64,000 bases of DNA from Comamonadaceae bacterium. Lineage in GTDB: Bacteria; Pseudomonadota; Gammaproteobacteria; Burkholderiales; Burkholderiaceae_C. Where the stretch lies: contig CANBWK010000005.1 of NCBI GenBank assembly GCA_947373105.1, forward strand, positions 1-64,000. The letters are read 5' to 3'. Position numbers and translations under genes: made by a program. The notes below the pieces were generated by a model, which was not told the DNA's origin, made no database searches, and saw only the letters and a program-made list of their open reading frames with translations. This document shows, piece by piece, positions 5,905-13,463 of this stretch (position 1 is the stretch's first letter; each line of letters begins with the position of its first letter).

Positions 5905-6672
5905 ATGACGAGAGCCGAAACCCGAGCCCATCTGAACAGTTCCAACCTCACGCGATTCTTAACTGAAAGCGGTATGACCGAGCCTGCGCCGTCCAAAGAA
6001 GACGTTGGGCAACAGTTGGGGGACTGGCTGAACTTCAAGCAAGCGATTTCACTGCATGGGGTCCTGAGCCAGGAATCGCTGACCCTGGCAGCATCGCCGC
6101 GCAGTGTTGCGCCGATCGCCACAAAAGCCCTGCGCCAGCATGTTGAAAAAGTTCGCACTGCATTGGCGCTGTCCCTGTCCGAAGGCGCGCCCACCGGTTC
6201 GGGCTTGACACGCATTGATATGCCTGAAGTCGGACTCGACGAACCGATTGACTTTAAGGCCGCCTTTGAACCGTACCGAAGATTCCATGCGGCTCATCAG
6301 CGGCAGATGGAACAAGTCATCAGGACTTTGCGTTCGCAGGTGCGAGGCCAAATGGCCAATGCACCCGCACTGAAACAACTGGCCCATTTGGATGCTGAAT
6401 TTGAAAATATTCTTCAAGAACGCGAAACAGCCTTATTTGGCAAAGTGACCAAGCTGTTTGAAAAGCGCTTTACCCAAGCCCTCAAACAACACCTCAAAAA
6501 GCAAACAGAAGCCACCCAAGAGAACCCTCCTGCCGACTTGAACCCATGGGCGTGGTTAAGCGCACTGCGACAAGAATTGCGAACCGCCTTGCTGGCCGAA
6601 CTGGACACGCGGATGCAACCCACCATGGGCTTGCTTGAAGCCTTAAACCCAGAATACCCACAAGAACAATGA
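5905..6672 (+). CDS. DUF3348 family protein
   Basis: MTRAETRAHLNSSNLTRFLTESGM...QLGDWLNFKQAISLHGVL resembles the DUF3348 N-terminus; ORF opens at TTG 5818 but ATG at 5905 fits the family start. Overlaps next gene by ATGA. Confidence 0.75.
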   Translation: MTRAETRAHLNSSNLTRFLTESGMTEPAPSKEDVGQQLGDWLNFKQAISLHGVLSQESLTLAASPRSVAPIATKALRQHVEKVRTALALSLSEGAPTGSGLTRIDMPEVGLDEPIDFKAAFEPYRRFHAAHQRQMEQVIRTLRSQVRGQMANAPALKQLAHLDAEFENILQERETALFGKVTKLFEKRFTQALKQHLKKQTEATQENPPADLNPWAWLSALRQELRTALLAELDTRMQPTMGLLEALNPEYPQEQ

Positions 6673-8708
6673 AACGATATTCCTTTCAAATTGCATTTTC
6701 AATCGGCGCTTTCGCACTCCTATGGGTTGCGGCTTACGTGGCCAGCAGTCACCTTTTGGTCCTCGTCATGACGGCACTCATTGGGGCGGTCTATCTTTTT
6801 GGTGCGTTGGAGTTGCGGCATTACCGCAGCACCACGACAGCCTTGAGTCAAGGTTTAGAAGAAATTCCTGAGAATTTGCACACCCTGAACGATTGGCTGA
6901 TCACCCTGCCCGCTTCGCTGCACAACGCGGTGCGTCAACGTGTTGAAGGCGAACGGCAAGGATTGCCCGGCCCGGCACTCACGCCCTATCTGGTGGGGCT
7001 GCTGGTCATGCTGGGCATGTTGGGCACCTTTTTGGGGATGGTGGTCACGCTCAATGGCGCCGTCTTTGCGTTGGAAGGCTCCAGCAACGTGGCGGGCATC
7101 CGCGCCGCATTTTCAGAACCCATCAAAGGCTTGGGCCTGGCGTTTGGCACCTCGGTTGCTGGTGTGGCCACCTCGGCCATGCTGGGTCTGATGAGCAGCC
7201 TGGCCCGACGCGAGCGCGCTCAAGCAAGCCAGACGCTGGACAGCCGCATCGCCAGCAGCCTGAGAAGCTTTTCACTCACGCACCAGCGCCAGGAAACCTT
7301 CAAAGCCTTGCAACAGCAATCGCATGCCCTCCCCCAAGTGGTCGCACAACTGCAGACCATGATGCTGCAGATGGCCCAGACCAGCGAACAAATCAATGCA
7401 CAGCTCATAGCCAACCAGCAAAGCTTTCACCAGGATGTGCACACCGCCTACACGGGCTTGGCACAATCGGTGGACCAATCGCTGCGTACCAGCTTGAGTC
7501 AGAGCATGCAAATGGCCAGCGACGGCATACGTCCTGTGGTACAGGCAACGATGACGCACTTGGCCGAGCAAGCCCAGAGCATGAACGAGAAATTGCGACT
7601 CAACACACAGCAGCAACTGAGCGAGCTCAACGCGCAGTTCAGCGTCACAGCAGCAAGTGTGTCGCAGACTTACCGCACAGCCCTTGATCAGAACCAAGCA
7701 CAGCAAAGCATCGCCGACCAAGCCCGTTTGGAGGCTTGGAAAGCCTCGCTTGAAAGCATGGCCACATCGTTGAGCAGCCAATGGCAAGCCTCGGGCACGC
7801 AAACACTGACCCAGCAGCAAGCCGTCTGCGACACCCTGACCCAAACCGCGCAAGCGATCACCACCCACACCCAAACGCAGGCCACGCAAACGCTGGCCGA
7901 GGTCACCCGCCTCATGGCCAGCAGCGAAGAGCTGATGCGCGCGCGCATTGCTTCAGAGGCGCAATGGGCGGCGCAGCACGCCCAGCGCTCGGAAGAGCTC
8001 AGCGCCTTGCTTCGCACCGAGCTGTCGGCCCTGCGCGAGGCCGAAGACGTACGCGGCCAGGCCGCCGTGGCCCGTTTGAGCGAATTGCAAACCGCCGTGA
8101 CGGTGCACCTGACGACCTTGGGCACCGCCCTGGAAGACCCGATCACACGCCTGATCGAGACCGCATCGCAAGCACCCAAAGCAGCGGCCGAAGTGATTGG
8201 TCAGTTGCGCCAAGAAATCTCAGTCAGCGTGGCGCGAGACAACACCCTGCTTGAAGAGCGCACCCGCATCATGGACACGCTCAGCCATTTGTTAGATGCG
8301 ATCAACCATTCGTCGACCGAACAACGCAGCGTGATCGACAACTTGGTCAGCTCGTCCGCGGCCACCTTGAACCAGGCCAACAGCCAGTTCATCGACCATG
8401 TGAGCAGTGAGTCTGCCAAGCTGGGCGACATTGCGGCGCAAGTGACGGCCAGCGCGGTGGACGTGGCGAGTCTGGGCGAGACCTTTGCTTTTGCAGTGCG
8501 CTCGTTCAACGAGACCAACGAAAAGCTCATGGGCAACTTGCAGCGCATCGAGCAGGCGATCGACAAGTCCATGACCCGCAGCGACGAGCAGCTGGCTTAC
8601 TACGTGGCACAGGCCCGCGAAATCATTGACCTGAGCATCACTTCGCAAAAAGACGTGCTGGAAACGCTGCAAAGACGTGCAGCCCAGACCCATGAGGGAG
8701 CCGTTTGA
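6669..8708 (+). CDS. DUF802 family protein: MotA/TolQ/ExbB-like membrane domain with about 450-residue helical tail
   Basis: Hydrophobic segments near N-terminus, LTPYLVGLLVMLGMLGTFLGMVVTLNG and IKGLGLAFGTSVAGVATSAMLGLMSSLARRERAQ; then long Gln/Ala/Ser/Thr-rich helical region. Confidence 0.82.
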   Translation: MKRYSFQIAFSIGAFALLWVAAYVASSHLLVLVMTALIGAVYLFGALELRHYRSTTTALSQGLEEIPENLHTLNDWLITLPASLHNAVRQRVEGERQGLPGPALTPYLVGLLVMLGMLGTFLGMVVTLNGAVFALEGSSNVAGIRAAFSEPIKGLGLAFGTSVAGVATSAMLGLMSSLARRERAQASQTLDSRIASSLRSFSLTHQRQETFKALQQQSHALPQVVAQLQTMMLQMAQTSEQINAQLIANQQSFHQDVHTAYTGLAQSVDQSLRTSLSQSMQMASDGIRPVVQATMTHLAEQAQSMNEKLRLNTQQQLSELNAQFSVTAASVSQTYRTALDQNQAQQSIADQARLEAWKASLESMATSLSSQWQASGTQTLTQQQAVCDTLTQTAQAITTHTQTQATQTLAEVTRLMASSEELMRARIASEAQWAAQHAQRSEELSALLRTELSALREAEDVRGQAAVARLSELQTAVTVHLTTLGTALEDPITRLIETASQAPKAAAEVIGQLRQEISVSVARDNTLLEERTRIMDTLSHLLDAINHSSTEQRSVIDNLVSSSAATLNQANSQFIDHVSSESAKLGDIAAQVTASAVDVASLGETFAFAVRSFNETNEKLMGNLQRIEQAIDKSMTRSDEQLAYYVAQAREIIDLSITSQKDVLETLQRRAAQTHEGAV

Positions 8709-9355
8709 TGCTGGACCACGACGCAGACGTCGAGTCGAGCGCGCCAGTCTGGATCTCGTTTGCCGACCTGATGACCGGCCTGCTGGGCGCATTTGTACTG
8801 CTGTTGGTGGGCGTCATGGCCACACAGTTGGACATGGCCTCCAAGCTGGAAAACGAGGTGCAAAAGCGCCAGATCGAAGAACAAAAACGCCTGACACTGG
8901 AGAAGGCACTGGCCATTCCACTGGCCAGCGGTCGGATCACCTTGAACAATGGCCGTATCGGCATCAGCGGCAAATTGCTGTTTGAACTCAACTCCGACAA
9001 GCTCGAACCCGAGGGCCGCCAGCTGCTCAAAAGTCTGGTGGTGCCGCTGCGCAGTTACCTGCAATCACGTGAAGAAATGCTGATGGTCAGCGGATTTACC
9101 GATGACAAATCGATCACCAGTCGCAACCGTCAATTTGAAGACAACTGGGAACTTTCTGCACAACGTGCGCTGACTGTCACCCGCACTTTGATTGACGAAG
9201 GCATGCCGCCGTCCATGCTGTTTGCCGCCGCATTTGGCAAAGAGCAAGCCCTGACACCCAACACCGATGACAAAGCCCGAGCCCAAAACAGACGCGTAGA
9301 AATTGCGCCTGTGCCCAAAGTCAGCAATGCAACCCCAACCGCAGCCAAGCCATGA
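8708..9355 (+). CDS. OmpA/MotB-like peptidoglycan-binding protein with single N-terminal TM helix
   Basis: VWISFADLMTGLLGAFVLLLVGVMATQ TM segment; OmpA core LLFELNSDKLEPEGRQLLKSL...SGFTDDK...NWELSAQRALTVTRTLI...NRRVEI. Confidence 0.88.
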   Translation: MLDHDADVESSAPVWISFADLMTGLLGAFVLLLVGVMATQLDMASKLENEVQKRQIEEQKRLTLEKALAIPLASGRITLNNGRIGISGKLLFELNSDKLEPEGRQLLKSLVVPLRSYLQSREEMLMVSGFTDDKSITSRNRQFEDNWELSAQRALTVTRTLIDEGMPPSMLFAAAFGKEQALTPNTDDKARAQNRRVEIAPVPKVSNATPTAAKP

Positions 9356-9963
9356 ACCAGGTGGCGCCCAGCATGCCCCTATCGCAATCCCTGGTGGCGT
9401 CGCTGCGAACTGAAGGTGCGGCGAACTTTGATGCTGTGGGTTGGCATTACATCGAAGTGTTGCATGAACGCACCTGCGGGCAAACGGGTTTGGCGCAGCA
9501 ACTGCTCACTGAAAAATTGGTCAAACTGCTGGTCGATTTCAAAGCACGATTTGAAGCCGGGCAAAAGCCGCCACAGGCCCTGCCGTTGCCCCCAATGGAA
9601 CCGCCTTCACCCTTGGCCAATTTGCTGAATGACATGGTCCAGCACTTGCCCACAGAGGACTCAACCCGCAGGGGTAAGACAGCCAACTGGCGCGTTGAAA
9701 GCCCCCAAGTTAAAAGGTTCCGTCAAGCGCTGGGCAAAATCAGCGTGCAAAAACAAGTGGCGAAGGCCATGGCCCAGGCACCGCACAATGCGGGTCCCAT
9801 CAACTCGCACATGCTGGTTCTCAGATCGCTGGGTCTCATGCGCCAATGTGCACCGGACTACTTGAACCGGTTTATGGCTTATACGCAGACCTTGTTCTAT
9901 TTGGACGATGCCGGCAAAGTGCGGCAACCCGCGCCCAAAAAATCAACGCCATTGAAACGTTAA
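9352..9963 (+). CDS. DUF2894 family protein
   Basis: Position in DUF3348-DUF802-OmpA operon and family-like content (WRVESPQVKRFRQALGKISVQKQVAKAMAQAPHNAGPINSHMLVLRSLGLMRQCAPDYLNRFMAYTQTLFYLD). Confidence 0.75.
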   Translation: MNQVAPSMPLSQSLVASLRTEGAANFDAVGWHYIEVLHERTCGQTGLAQQLLTEKLVKLLVDFKARFEAGQKPPQALPLPPMEPPSPLANLLNDMVQHLPTEDSTRRGKTANWRVESPQVKRFRQALGKISVQKQVAKAMAQAPHNAGPINSHMLVLRSLGLMRQCAPDYLNRFMAYTQTLFYLDDAGKVRQPAPKKSTPLKR

Positions 9964-10988
9964 ACCGTCAACAAATCCATCTGGAATTGAGGCATCACTT
10001 CTTCAATAAACAAGTTAAGTGAGGTCAACGACTCCTCGTAGGTCAAGTCCCCAAATGCAAATCGCGTTAAGACGTAATTAGCACCAGAAATTTGCACTTC
10101 GCGGGCCAACTTTTCGGCCACTTCATCCGCTGTACCGGTAATGACAATGCCGGCGCTGGTTGCCGCAGCAAAATCTTCGGGGATGGGGTAGCTTTTCATG
10201 GGATTGCCATGCGCACGCCACAGGTGCTGCAAACTGTTGTACCAACAGGCGAAGGCGCGTTTGCCAATGTTGTAGGCCTCTTGGCTGGTTTTGGCTATCA
10301 CCAAGTGCCGCCCTAAACCCATGAAGGGCATGACAGACTTTTCGGCATCAAATTTGGCATGCCAAATTTCTTTGTACTTGTCGGTAATGGCTTTGATCGG
10401 CGCAGAGGGCCCGTTGCACACAATATTGACGTTGTTTTCTGCAGCCCATGGGACCGCAGCGGGAGAAGACATGCCATACCAAATGGGTGGATGCGGCTTT
10501 TGCACACACTCCAACTCAACAGGCACATTGTCAAACTTGAAGTACTCGCCTTCAAAGTTGATCCGCTTGGAAGTCAGCCCCATCATGACCACATCGTAGG
10601 ACTCGATGTACAACTTGCCTGAGTTCTGGGCGTTGACCCCGAAATACCCCATTTCGTAGGGAGAGCTGCCACGGCCAATGCCCAATTCAAGTCGTCCACC
10701 ACTCATTTGGTCCAGCATGCAGACCTCCTCAATGATGCGCAAAGGGTGCGTCAAACTGAGCGTGTATACGAGAGGACCGAATCGCAAATTTTTCGTTCTT
10801 TGCGCAACGGCCGCTAAAAATACACTCGGAGATGAAGCCATCCCAAGCGGCGTGCCATGGTGCTCAGCAATGTGATACGCATGAAAGTTGGCACGGTCAT
10901 AGACTTCCGCCAATTTGAGCCTGTTTTCAAAATGCGCTGTCAAGCCCACAGCGCCACGATCCAAGTGGTCAAATACACCAAATTTCAT
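9960..10988 (-). CDS. LLM class flavin-dependent oxidoreductase (luciferase-like)
   Basis: MKFGVFDHLDRG...YHIAEHHGTPLG...LDQMSGGRLELGIGRGSSPYE. Confidence 0.9.
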   Translation of the reverse strand: MKFGVFDHLDRGAVGLTAHFENRLKLAEVYDRANFHAYHIAEHHGTPLGMASSPSVFLAAVAQRTKNLRFGPLVYTLSLTHPLRIIEEVCMLDQMSGGRLELGIGRGSSPYEMGYFGVNAQNSGKLYIESYDVVMMGLTSKRINFEGEYFKFDNVPVELECVQKPHPPIWYGMSSPAAVPWAAENNVNIVCNGPSAPIKAITDKYKEIWHAKFDAEKSVMPFMGLGRHLVIAKTSQEAYNIGKRAFACWYNSLQHLWRAHGNPMKSYPIPEDFAAATSAGIVITGTADEVAEKLAREVQISGANYVLTRFAFGDLTYEESLTSLNLFIEEVMPQFQMDLLTV

Positions 10989-11005
10989 ACCGTATCACTC
11001 GCCTT

Positions 11006-11593
11006 TTAAGTTTGGGGGGCCAGGGGGTCTATGCCATCGATCAAAACAAACGCCAGTCGGCAAAAGTCTTTAGAGCGATTCACCCACGCGTGGTTGGTAC
11101 CTTGCTGCACCATGATGTCACCCGCTTTCATGTGGACCTCTGAGTCATCGAGGAGCATGTCTATTTCGCCCGATAAAACAATCGCGTAATCCACACTTGG
11201 GGTCCGGTGCATGTAAGCATGGCGTGCGCCTTTCCCGTCAGCATGTGGGTCCACGCCCATGGCTTTGAGCAGGTCTTCTTGATTCATGGCTTCGGCTTCA
11301 GCTGTGATGGGCGGAAAATCCACGATCCTTAAAATTGAGCCTTTTGAAGGCGGCGGCACGCTGATGGTTCTGGCGGCGCGGTCGGTTTTTGTATCGAGTC
11401 GCGCAGGCGTTTCTTCTGTGACCCACAGGAGGGTGCTGACAAAACCGGCCCCTTCCCTGGTTTTTTGGTTCGGTGCAAAGCCATCTATTTCTACGATGGC
11501 TTTTCCATGAGCGTCATGCCCTGTGACGATTCGGCGAATTCTGTGGTCCATGTTCATTCTTTCTATCAAGTCATTTTCAATCGACGACGGCAC
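11006..11593 (-). CDS. cupin domain-containing protein
   Basis: HRTPSVDYAIVLSGEIDMLLDDSEVHMKAGDIMVQQGTNHAWVNRS; real start may be the internal MNMDHRIRR. Confidence 0.85.
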   Translation of the reverse strand: MPSSIENDLIERMNMDHRIRRIVTGHDAHGKAIVEIDGFAPNQKTREGAGFVSTLLWVTEETPARLDTKTDRAARTISVPPPSKGSILRIVDFPPITAEAEAMNQEDLLKAMGVDPHADGKGARHAYMHRTPSVDYAIVLSGEIDMLLDDSEVHMKAGDIMVQQGTNHAWVNRSKDFCRLAFVLIDGIDPLAPQT

Positions 11594-12545
11594 CTGAGTT
11601 TTGAATTGCAGGCGCCCAGCGTTTGTATTCCCTTTTCACAAACTCAGCCATCTCTGCGGGGCTCAAAGGCTCAGAGGGTTCCATGGCGGCCTTGTCCAAG
11701 AGTGCTGCATAGGCTGGCGTGGCCTGGAATTTTTTAAGCCTGTCTGCAAGCAACTCCACGATGGCGCTGGGCATATTGGGAGGGCCTGCAAAGGCGATCC
11801 AACCTGACCAATCAAAGCCAGGAACAGTTTCTGCAATCGGGGGGACGGACGGCACGAGGACAGTTCTTTTGGCCATGGACGTGCCCAGGGCAAAGAGCTT
11901 GTTGGTTTTTAAATGGGGAATCGCCAAGGTGCCATCAATGAATGACATATCGACTTGACCTGACAATAAATCCACCATCGAGGTGTTGCTGCCTTTATAG
12001 GGCACATGAATGATGTTCAGGCCAAGTTGTTTTTTAAGTAACTCCATGAAGATGTGTTGCGGTGACCCATTGCCTGATGAGGCATAAGAGTATTTTCCGG
12101 GGTTCTTGCGCACCACCTCAATCCAATCTTTCATGTTGCGCGCTGGAAATGTAGACGTTGCCACGAGAAAGAAATTGGTCACACCCAGGCGCGCGATGGG
12201 CGTCAAGTCTTTCAGGGGATCAAACCCTGGATTGGCCATCAACTGCGGCCCCAGACTCAGGGTGGTGACCGTCGGCACCATCAGCGTATAGCCATCAGGT
12301 GGCGCCACTGCAACGGCCTTCGCTGCCAACAAGGTACTGGCGCCCGCCTTGTTTTCAATCACAAAAGTTTGCTTCAGGCTTGATTGCAACTCATCACCAA
12401 TGGCGCGTCCAAGGGCATCTACAAGAGATCCTGCCGTGAATGGCACGACGATTTTGACCGGCTTGTTCGGGTAAGTTTTAACATCTTGGCCTTGTGCATT
12501 GATGCTGATCAATGCACACGCCCAGAATAAAAGTAAATTTAACAA
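11577..12545 (-). CDS. tripartite tricarboxylate transporter substrate-binding protein (Bug/TctC family)
   Basis: YPNKPVKIVVPFTAGSLVDALGRAIGDEL...VENKAGASTLLAAKAVA...PDGYTL...HVPYKGS. Confidence 0.9.
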   Translation of the reverse strand: MLNLLLFWACALISINAQGQDVKTYPNKPVKIVVPFTAGSLVDALGRAIGDELQSSLKQTFVIENKAGASTLLAAKAVAVAPPDGYTLMVPTVTTLSLGPQLMANPGFDPLKDLTPIARLGVTNFFLVATSTFPARNMKDWIEVVRKNPGKYSYASSGNGSPQHIFMELLKKQLGLNIIHVPYKGSNTSMVDLLSGQVDMSFIDGTLAIPHLKTNKLFALGTSMAKRTVLVPSVPPIAETVPGFDWSGWIAFAGPPNMPSAIVELLADRLKKFQATPAYAALLDKAAMEPSEPLSPAEMAEFVKREYKRWAPAIQNSGAVVD

Positions 12546-12566
12546 TGGTTGCTCCTTGTTTTTAAA

Positions 12567-12581
12567 TTACGTTTAGCGTAA
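12567..12581. promoter_or_regulatory. Inverted repeat TTACG-N5-CGTAA in the divergent promoter region; candidate IclR-family operator
   Basis: Read directly between tctC-like gene (start 12545, -) and IclR gene (start 12675, +). Confidence 0.5.
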
Positions 12582-12674
12582 ATTCTTACGTATAATGAAA
12601 TGAATTTAATACGGCAACACGACCCTGTCAACAGGGTTTTCACGCCTTTTCTGCAACAAAAAAAGAAACAACCC

Positions 12675-13463
12675 ATGCAAACAAGACAACAGGGCGTAGA
12701 TGCAGCAGAGGTCGTGGGCGCCATTGTGCAGGGGATGCTTCAAACCTCTCGCCCTGTTCGGTTGAAAGACTTGGAAAAGCAAACAGGCATAGCCTCGGCA
12801 AAGCTGCACCGCTATTTGGTCAGCATGTTGCGTTCTGGGCTTGTCGCCAAAACAGCCGATGGCAGTCGATACGACTTTGGCTTGTTAGCCTATCGAATTG
12901 GACAGTTGGCCACCCACGACCAAGATGAGTTGGACTTGTTGGAACCCTTTTTCAAAGACTTTATTGACCAACTTCAGGACGACGATCTGGGGCAGGCGGT
13001 AGGAATAGGTCGCTGGGTCGGCACAGGCGCAACCATGGTGAAATGGTTTGAGCGTGATTCGCCGCTCTCGATCCGCTCCAACCCGGGCGCGCAATTGGGC
13101 ATCACCACATCGGCCACGGCCAAATTATTGGCGGCCCATTTACCCGCTAAAGTGACAAAACCTTTGGTGCTGCGCGAACTCAAAGAACGCGCGTGTTTTT
13201 CAAACGCCAATGTCAAATTGGTGTTCAATGACTACGCAAAAATAGTGACTACCGGCATTGCCAACTCCATAGGCGCACGGCGAACTGGTTTGAATGCTTT
13301 GTCCACACCACTCTTTGACAAGTCAGGCAAAGTGGTTGCCGCCATCACCATTTTGGGCATGGCTCCGAACTTCGAAGCCAGCCTCGATGGCCGGGCCGCC
13401 CAATTGCTGATGACCTTGGGTCGGCAGTTGTCTTTGAAGCTGGGGTTCAGCCCATCTCCCTGA
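12675..13463 (+). CDS. IclR family transcriptional regulator
   Basis: Helix-turn-helix RLKDLEKQTGIASAKLHRYLVSMLRSGLV and IclR effector domain; ORF extends upstream to 12600. Confidence 0.88.
   Translation: MQTRQQGVDAAEVVGAIVQGMLQTSRPVRLKDLEKQTGIASAKLHRYLVSMLRSGLVAKTADGSRYDFGLLAYRIGQLATHDQDELDLLEPFFKDFIDQLQDDDLGQAVGIGRWVGTGATMVKWFERDSPLSIRSNPGAQLGITTSATAKLLAAHLPAKVTKPLVLRELKERACFSNANVKLVFNDYAKIVTTGIANSIGARRTGLNALSTPLFDKSGKVVAAITILGMAPNFEASLDGRAAQLLMTLGRQLSLKLGFSPSP

What the first reader, a model, noticed from the sequence alone, without database searches (positions are those of the whole stretch)
5905..9963. Four-gene coupled operon DUF3348 - DUF802 - OmpA - DUF2894: candidate ion-driven envelope motor of unknown function
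Seen in sequence: four consecutive + strand genes joined by overlapping stop/start codons (ATGA at 6669-6672, TGATG at 8706-8710, ATGA at 9352-9355). The 679-aa DUF802 protein has MotA/TolQ/ExbB-like hydrophobic segments near its N-terminus, then roughly 450 residues of predicted helical, Gln/Ala-rich tail. Its partner has one TM helix and a C-terminal OmpA peptidoglycan-binding domain, as in MotB. Established knowledge: MotA/MotB, ExbB/ExbD and ZorA/ZorB (Zorya anti-phage system) are 5:2 ion-driven motors, and ZorA has a long intracellular helical tail. Inference: this operon encodes a ZorAB-like long-tailed stator, with the DUF3348 and DUF2894 proteins as cytoplasmic partners in place of ZorC/D/E. 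I know of no described function for these DUFs.
Basis: partly seen in the sequence, partly recalled or inferred. Interest (0 to 1): 0.82.

Follow-up and report, generated by a model that had tools for sequence, protein, structure and literature searches.

The report
Zorya type III anti-phage motor operon
These four genes are an ordinary, intact copy of a known bacterial anti-virus system (Zorya type III), an ion-driven, flagellar-motor-like complex in the cell envelope with a long internal rod and two helper proteins of unknown action; the fresh points are that the rod's length evolves by duplications that keep its helix in phase and that some bacterial genera almost always carry the system.

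Summary
The four coupled genes at 5905-9963 are real and intact. They are a Zorya type III system in a Limnohabitans genome, in the order DUF3348, zorA, zorB, DUF2894 (PADLOC E 1e-55, 1e-247, 7e-105, 6e-51).

Found here: (1) perfect co-occurrence: ZorB3, DUF3348 and DUF2894 sit in the same 97 of 301 family genomes, none without the others; (2) motor residues conserved (ZorB D20; ZorA T120 and S162 in 60/60, T161 in 53/60); (3) constant ZorA motor and conserved tip, but a rod of 311-826 residues that grows by tandem duplications preserving helical phase at 3.63 residues/turn (0 of 5000 random sets match); (4) near-universal in two genera (e.g. 68/70 Variovorax species), not found in phage records; (5) DUF3348 and DUF2894 proteins are all-helical without a recognisable fold, and DUF2894 has a basic C-terminal tail.

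Verdict: known system, correctly inferred; modest interest.

The parts
5905..6672 (+). DUF3348 gene, 255 aa (ZorG in PADLOC-DB 2, called ZorF in the text of Payne 2021); predicted all-helical, no recognisable fold
   Evidence: Pfam DUF3348 1.4e-54; PADLOC ZorG3 1.4e-55; AF2 pLDDT 88.3, pTM 0.85; no Foldseek match at E<=0.001 in PDB or BFVD
6669..8708 (+). zorA type III, 679 aa: motor domain (residues 1-230), rod (about 231-490), conserved tip (about 491-679)
   Evidence: PADLOC ZorA3 1.2e-247; profile of homologues finds solved type I ZorA 8vvn at E 8e-9; conservation profile
6669..7358 (+). ZorA motor domain, residues 1-230, four hydrophobic segments; ion-ring residues T120, T161, S162
   Evidence: N-domain 220-250 aa in 60 homologues; T120 60/60, S162 60/60, T161 53/60; opposite T158 and T197/S198 of Shewanella ZorA by counting along the alignment
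7359..8138 (+). ZorA rod, residues 231-490, hydrophobic period about 3.66; the stretch that varies in length by tandem duplication in relatives (no strong repeat in this copy)
   Evidence: Tail 311-826 aa in 132 homologues, repeat units in phase
8139..8705 (+). ZorA tip, residues 491-679, with near-invariant RSDEQLAYYVAQARE (637-651): proposed docking site for the DUF3348 and DUF2894 proteins
   Evidence: Conservation 0.5-0.7 against 0.22-0.24 in residues 401-480; invariant columns. Docking is inference
8708..9355 (+). zorB type III, 215 aa: one TM helix with D20, linker, C-terminal OmpA peptidoglycan-binding domain (91-195)
   Evidence: PADLOC ZorB3 7.5e-105; OmpA 7.5e-17; D20 aligns to D24 of 8vvn and D26 of 8qyd; invariant in 32 homologues
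9352..9963 (+). DUF2894 gene, 203 aa (ZorF in PADLOC-DB 2, called ZorG in the text of Payne 2021); helical, with a basic C-terminal tail
   Evidence: Pfam DUF2894 2.6e-42; PADLOC ZorF3 6.1e-51; AF2 pLDDT 79.9, pTM 0.42; tail basic in the 45 of 47 homologues with at least 8 tail residues
3728..4453 (+). nth (endonuclease III), conserved upstream neighbour marking the insertion site in Limnohabitans; not part of the system
   Evidence: 16 of 20 same-genus loci have it upstream; in 8 genomes without the operon it is next to or near btuDCF

Best explanation
The operon is an intact Zorya type III anti-phage system. SHOWN here by sequence: ZorA and ZorB carry the MotAB/ZorAB motor signature; ZorB has a peptidoglycan-binding domain; ZorA has a constant motor domain, a helical rod of variable length and a conserved type III tip; the DUF3348 and DUF2894 genes are obligate companions. 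SHOWN elsewhere: a type III system protects E. coli from phages (Payne 2021), and type I/II ZorAB are 5:2 ion-driven motors with a five-helix rod that need ion flow, peptidoglycan binding and the rod (Mariano 2025). INFERRED: ZorA5B2 sits in the inner membrane; phage damage to the envelope lets ZorB grip peptidoglycan and opens the ion path; ZorA turns or strains; the rod (about 67 nm for 449 tail residues at 1.5 A each) carries this into the cytoplasm; its tip recruits or activates the DUF3348 and DUF2894 proteins. DUF2894, with its basic tail, most likely touches DNA and DUF3348 most likely bridges it to the rod. Neither resembles a known nuclease or helicase, so the block on the phage would be DNA binding, an unrecognised enzyme, or a recruited host enzyme. 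Identity as type III Zorya: about 0.95; the inferred steps after the motor: about 0.35.
For: PADLOC type III models match all four genes. Gene order kept in 60 loci. ZorB3, DUF3348 and DUF2894 in the same 97 of 301 genomes and never apart. ZorB D20 and ZorA T120/T161/S162 aligned to solved Zorya motors and conserved. In-phase repeat units, 3.63 residues/turn, 0 of 5000 random sets, and hydrophobic period 3.66: a continuous multi-helix rod. Tip conservation. Basic DUF2894 tail. Purifying selection on all four. Phage protection by a type III system and requirement for ion flow, peptidoglycan binding and rod in types I/II (PMC8565338, PMC11890865).
Against: No phage test of this copy. No direct evidence for 5:2 assembly, ion flow, tip docking or DNA contact in type III. 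The near-fixed, chromosomal pattern in some genera is unusual for a defence system. No neighbouring defence genes. No effector enzyme identified.
Confidence: 0.72

Rival explanations
1. A domesticated, near-core envelope machine: in genera such as Variovorax the complex mainly does a house-keeping job (sensing or answering envelope stress through a peptidoglycan-anchored motor and rod), and phage defence is secondary or appears on over-expression.
For: Present in 68 of 70 good Variovorax genomes, one per species, and 16 of 18 in a second genus, against one weak hit for the type I ZorA model in the same Variovorax genomes; syntenic on both sides in 5 of 6 named Variovorax species; not in phage records; on plasmids only 27 of 72,556, those listed 0.37-3.5 Mb; core in R. 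solanacearum (PMC13064858).
Against: Phage protection was shown directly (PMC8565338). Patchy in Limnohabitans with clean empty sites and in only 42 of 115 genera of the family, so it is dispensable. Zorya and rpoB trees agree only partly between genera.
Confidence: 0.15
2. Abortive ion leak: the motor opens on infection and depolarises the cell, with the DUF3348 and DUF2894 proteins as gate or sensor only.
For: Proposed for Zorya by Doron et al. as cited in PMC8565338; an ion path with conserved D20 and polar ring is present; no effector enzyme recognised.
Against: In types I and II the work is done by DNA-acting partners brought in by ZorAB (PMC11890865); a leak does not need a phase-kept rod of up to 826 residues or a basic DUF2894 tail.
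Confidence: 0.08
3. A transport energiser of the ExbBD/TolQR kind or a flagellar stator, misfiled as Zorya.
For: Same motor superfamily; hydrophobic N-terminal segments; OmpA partner.
Against: Type III Zorya models far outscore all others; best solved relative of the ZorA profile is ZorA; long rod; DUF3348/DUF2894 always present; no transporter or flagellar partner among conserved flanks.
Confidence: 0.02

Closest known systems
Zorya type III (Payne et al. 2021, PMC8565338; tested operon from Stenotrophomonas nitritireducens)
   Same: All four genes, by PADLOC models built for this type; ZorAB flanked by the two DUF genes.
   Different: No functional difference known. This copy has a short rod (449 tail residues) and lacks the DUF802 stretch found in many relatives.
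Zorya types I and II (ZorAB with ZorC/ZorD, or ZorE; Mariano et al. 2025, PMC11890865)
   Same: Motor core: ZorB Asp, ZorA Ser/Thr ring, OmpA domain, long helical ZorA tail.
   Different: No ZorC, ZorD or ZorE; type-specific ZorA tip; tail length varies 311-826 residues with tandem repeats, whereas sizes are described as well conserved within types I and II.
MotA/MotB and PomA/PomB flagellar stators
   Same: Same ion-motor superfamily, peptidoglycan-anchored OmpA partner with TM Asp.
   Different: No rotor, long cytoplasmic rod, operon partners DUF3348 and DUF2894.
ExbB/ExbD and TolQ/TolR
   Same: Related motor fold by established knowledge.
   Different: Partner here is OmpA/MotB-like, not ExbD/TolR-like.

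Membership tests
Zorya type III | ZorA and ZorB of the type III families | tested here: met
   PADLOC ZorA3 1.2e-247 and ZorB3 7.5e-105; type I/II models at best 6e-7 (ZorA) and 2.8e-20 (ZorB)
Zorya type III | Flanking genes for DUF3348 and DUF2894 proteins | tested here: met
   Pfam 1.4e-54 and 2.6e-42; PADLOC 1.4e-55 and 6.1e-51; adjacent and overlapping
Zorya type III | Essential motor residues intact (ZorB TM Asp, ZorA polar ring) | tested here: met
   D20; T120, T161, S162
Zorya type III | Protection against phage | not testable with these tools
   Shown for another type III operon (PMC8565338), not for this one
Zorya type III | 5:2 ZorA:ZorB assembly | not testable with these tools
   No multimer prediction available; solved for types I and II only
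Zorya type I | ZorC and ZorD in the operon | tested here: not met
   No such gene among the four or among 10 neighbours scanned with PADLOC
Zorya type II | ZorE (HNH nickase) in the operon | tested here: not met
   No such gene among the four or the 10 neighbours
DUF802 (PF05650) | Match over the Pfam cut-off | tested here: not met
   No match at E<=1 for the window protein and none in the genome; 22 of 35 relatives do match
MotA/MotB flagellar stator | MotA/MotB families and flagellar gene context | tested here: not met
   No MotA Pfam match for gene 2, MotB_plug below cut-off for gene 3; no flagellar neighbours in the flanks read

The most novel reading that the evidence does not exclude
Type III Zorya is not a typical mobile defence system but a largely vertically kept, near-core envelope motor of several Burkholderiales genera in which the length of the ZorA rod is under selection: it changes in whole-turn steps by tandem duplication between a fixed motor and a fixed tip, so the rod works as an adjustable reach or lever, and the helpers ride on the tip to act on DNA (DUF2894 through its basic tail) without any classical nuclease.
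Probability: 0.2. Interest if true: 0.68.

Novelty: new member of a known kind. Interest (0 to 1): 0.36.

Why it matters
The locus adds one more member to a known defence type. The family view could matter more: I found no published structure or effector for type III, and it is near-core in some genera. Its rod forms a natural length series (311-826 residues, about 47-124 nm at 1.5 A per residue) with constant ends, a ready-made set for asking whether Zorya rods are levers, reach devices or tethers.

Tried and rejected
DUF802 as the identity of gene 2: rejected for this copy. A ZorA-ZorB fusion in L115: rejected, the reading shows a frameshift in the ZorA tip that runs into the zorB frame, and DUF2894 there has an internal stop. 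Foldseek for DUF3348 (PDB, viral) and DUF2894 (PDB): nothing significant; weak BrxX hits for DUF2894 (E about 1 or worse) discarded. My first rpoB trees mixed in antisense frames or lost nearly all rows and were redone. 'Defence island': weak PADLOC hits of nth, the LLM oxidoreductase and BtuD are house-keeping look-alikes. Other OmpA proteins match the ZorB3 model at E 1e-23 to 1e-6 in all relatives and were excluded by the E<=1e-60 limit. The Nature paper on E. coli type I Zorya is not in the library.
Full report
WHAT IS THERE. Pfam confirms DUF3348 (E 1.4e-54), OmpA (7.5e-17) and DUF2894 (2.6e-42), but not DUF802, which is absent from the whole genome at E<=0.001. The host is in the same genus as genomes deposited as Limnohabitans: same-genus contig G004:C37 (51,425 bases) has the length of the Limnohabitans record NZ_JAOASQ010000037.1 and the same match position.

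WHAT IT IS. PADLOC models of Zorya type III match every gene: ZorA3 1.2e-247, ZorB3 7.5e-105, DUF3348 1.4e-55, DUF2894 6.1e-51. Payne et al. 2021 (PMC8565338) named the type, counted 6,401 loci, showed that the Stenotrophomonas nitritireducens operon lowers plaquing of at least one phage in E. [quoted passage not shown] Mariano et al. 2025 (PMC11890865) solved type I and II ZorAB as 5:2 motors with a pentameric rod and mention type III without studying it. Names are swapped between sources: the Payne text calls DUF3348 ZorF and DUF2894 ZorG, PADLOC-DB 2 the reverse.

TESTS OF THE MOTOR READING. The ZorB helix aligns without gaps to solved type I ZorB, D20 opposite D24 of 8vvn and D26 of 8qyd, and D20 is invariant in 32 homologues. 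A profile of ZorA homologues finds solved type I ZorA (8vvn) first, E 8e-9, with T120 and T161/S162 opposite T158 and T197/S198 by counting along the alignment. T120 and S162 are invariant in 60 homologues and T161 is Thr in 53. Mariano et al. saw Na+ on the type I ring, so sodium use is a prediction here, not a result.

TESTS OF THE FOUR-GENE UNIT. In 60 loci (20 same genus, 40 from other genera of the family) the order DUF3348-zorA-zorB-DUF2894 is kept, with all four intact in 59. In 301 genomes of the family, ZorB3, DUF3348 and DUF2894 are each found in the same 97 genomes and nowhere else. All four genes are under purifying selection within the genus: median dN/dS 0.11 ZorB, 0.20 ZorA, 0.28 DUF3348, 0.33 DUF2894.

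THE ROD. ZorA residues 1-230 have near-constant length and high conservation. Residues 491-679 are again conserved, with a near-invariant RSDEQLAYYVAQARE, while 401-480 are poorly conserved (0.22-0.24). Among 132 ZorA proteins the tail is 311-826 residues long, and 55 carry tandem repeats. In 21 genes the repeats are still visible in DNA (at least 78% identity over 150 bases). All periods are multiples of three bases, and the units are 29, 40, 62, 69, 73, 80, 87, 91, 94 and 102 residues (plus 138 = 2 x 69). They are close to whole numbers of turns at 3.63 residues per turn: mean cosine 0.93 for the 11 listed lengths, reached by 0 of 5000 random sets of the same size and range with the period re-fitted each time. 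Caveats: 138 is not independent of 69, and each length is counted once whatever the number of species. The hydrophobic period of the same region, a separate measure, is 3.66. Within Limnohabitans the protein steps by 73 residues between relatives (716 to 789; 723 to 796). The simplest reading is a continuous multi-helix rod between fixed ends in which only phase-keeping changes survive. Mariano et al. state that sizes are well conserved within types I and II. My own control is weak: eight type I stretches scored at most 0.94 where repeats score 2 or more, several of them fragments.

THE HELPERS. DUF3348 is predicted all-helical with good confidence (pLDDT 88.3, pTM 0.85) and has no significant match among solved structures or viral models. 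DUF2894 is two helical parts with an uncertain mutual position (pTM 0.42), no significant match, and a C-terminal tail that is basic in all 45 of 47 homologues with at least 8 tail residues (K+R 31%, D+E 4%, median net charge +6). A basic tail suggests nucleic-acid contact; that is inference.

WHERE IT LIVES. It is found in 24 of 36 genomes of the genus. Of 20 same-genus loci, 16 keep nth and the PLP aminotransferase upstream, 18 keep btuD downstream and 15 keep both. In eight genomes without it the same site is clean: nth is followed by btuDCF within 31-358 bases in five and 1.5-2.9 kb in three. In Variovorax it is near-universal (68 of 70 good genomes, one per species), at a conserved site in five of six named species, while the type I ZorA model gives one weak hit. 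A second genus has it in 16 of 18. A survey shows type III Zorya as a highly conserved system of R. solanacearum (PMC13064858). No phage record has the DUF3348 gene; 27 of 72,556 plasmids have the ZorB gene, those listed being 0.37-3.5 Mb. Trees of the Zorya genes and rpoB agree within genera for the most part and only partly between them (8 of 27 splits shared; Mantel rho 0.44, 0 of 2000 permutations): mostly kept within genera, sometimes moved between them.

HOW IT MOST LIKELY WORKS. Motor and peptidoglycan grip (tested by sequence), continuous rod (tested by phase), tip docking and DNA contact (inferred), effector step (open). Rivals are a near-core envelope role, an abortive ion leak, and a misfiled transport or flagellar energiser.

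VERDICT. The extra findings on rod length and near-fixation are worth a note and easy to test, but they do not make the locus new.

Noticed in passing
ZorA genes in L062, L064, L087, L093, L101, L110, L117, L181, L188, L194: Rod length of ZorA3 evolves by tandem duplication of 29-102 residue units, all close to whole numbers of helical turns at 3.63 residues per turn; the window's copy has no strong repeat.
   Followed up: yes
L081-L091 and genus of G238 (Variovorax): Zorya type III is near-universal in Variovorax (68/70 good genomes) at a conserved chromosomal site, unusual for a defence system.
   Followed up: partly
L115 7442-10180: ZorA of G309 has a frameshift in its tip that runs into the zorB frame, and DUF2894 there has an in-frame TGA: a decayed copy or a sequencing error.
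   Followed up: partly
window 5905-6672 and 9352-9963: ZorF/ZorG names are swapped between the text of Payne 2021 and PADLOC-DB 2.0, a trap for annotation.
   Followed up: yes
window 9960-13463: LLM-class oxidoreductase, cupin-like, Bug-family and IclR-like genes lie between DUF2894 and btuD here but were not found at this place in the 20 same-genus loci.
   Followed up: no
Limnohabitans genomes: Near-complete genomes lacking the operon are small (about 2.8-3.1 Mb) while those with it range 2.6-4.9 Mb, a hint of loss with genome reduction.
   Followed up: no
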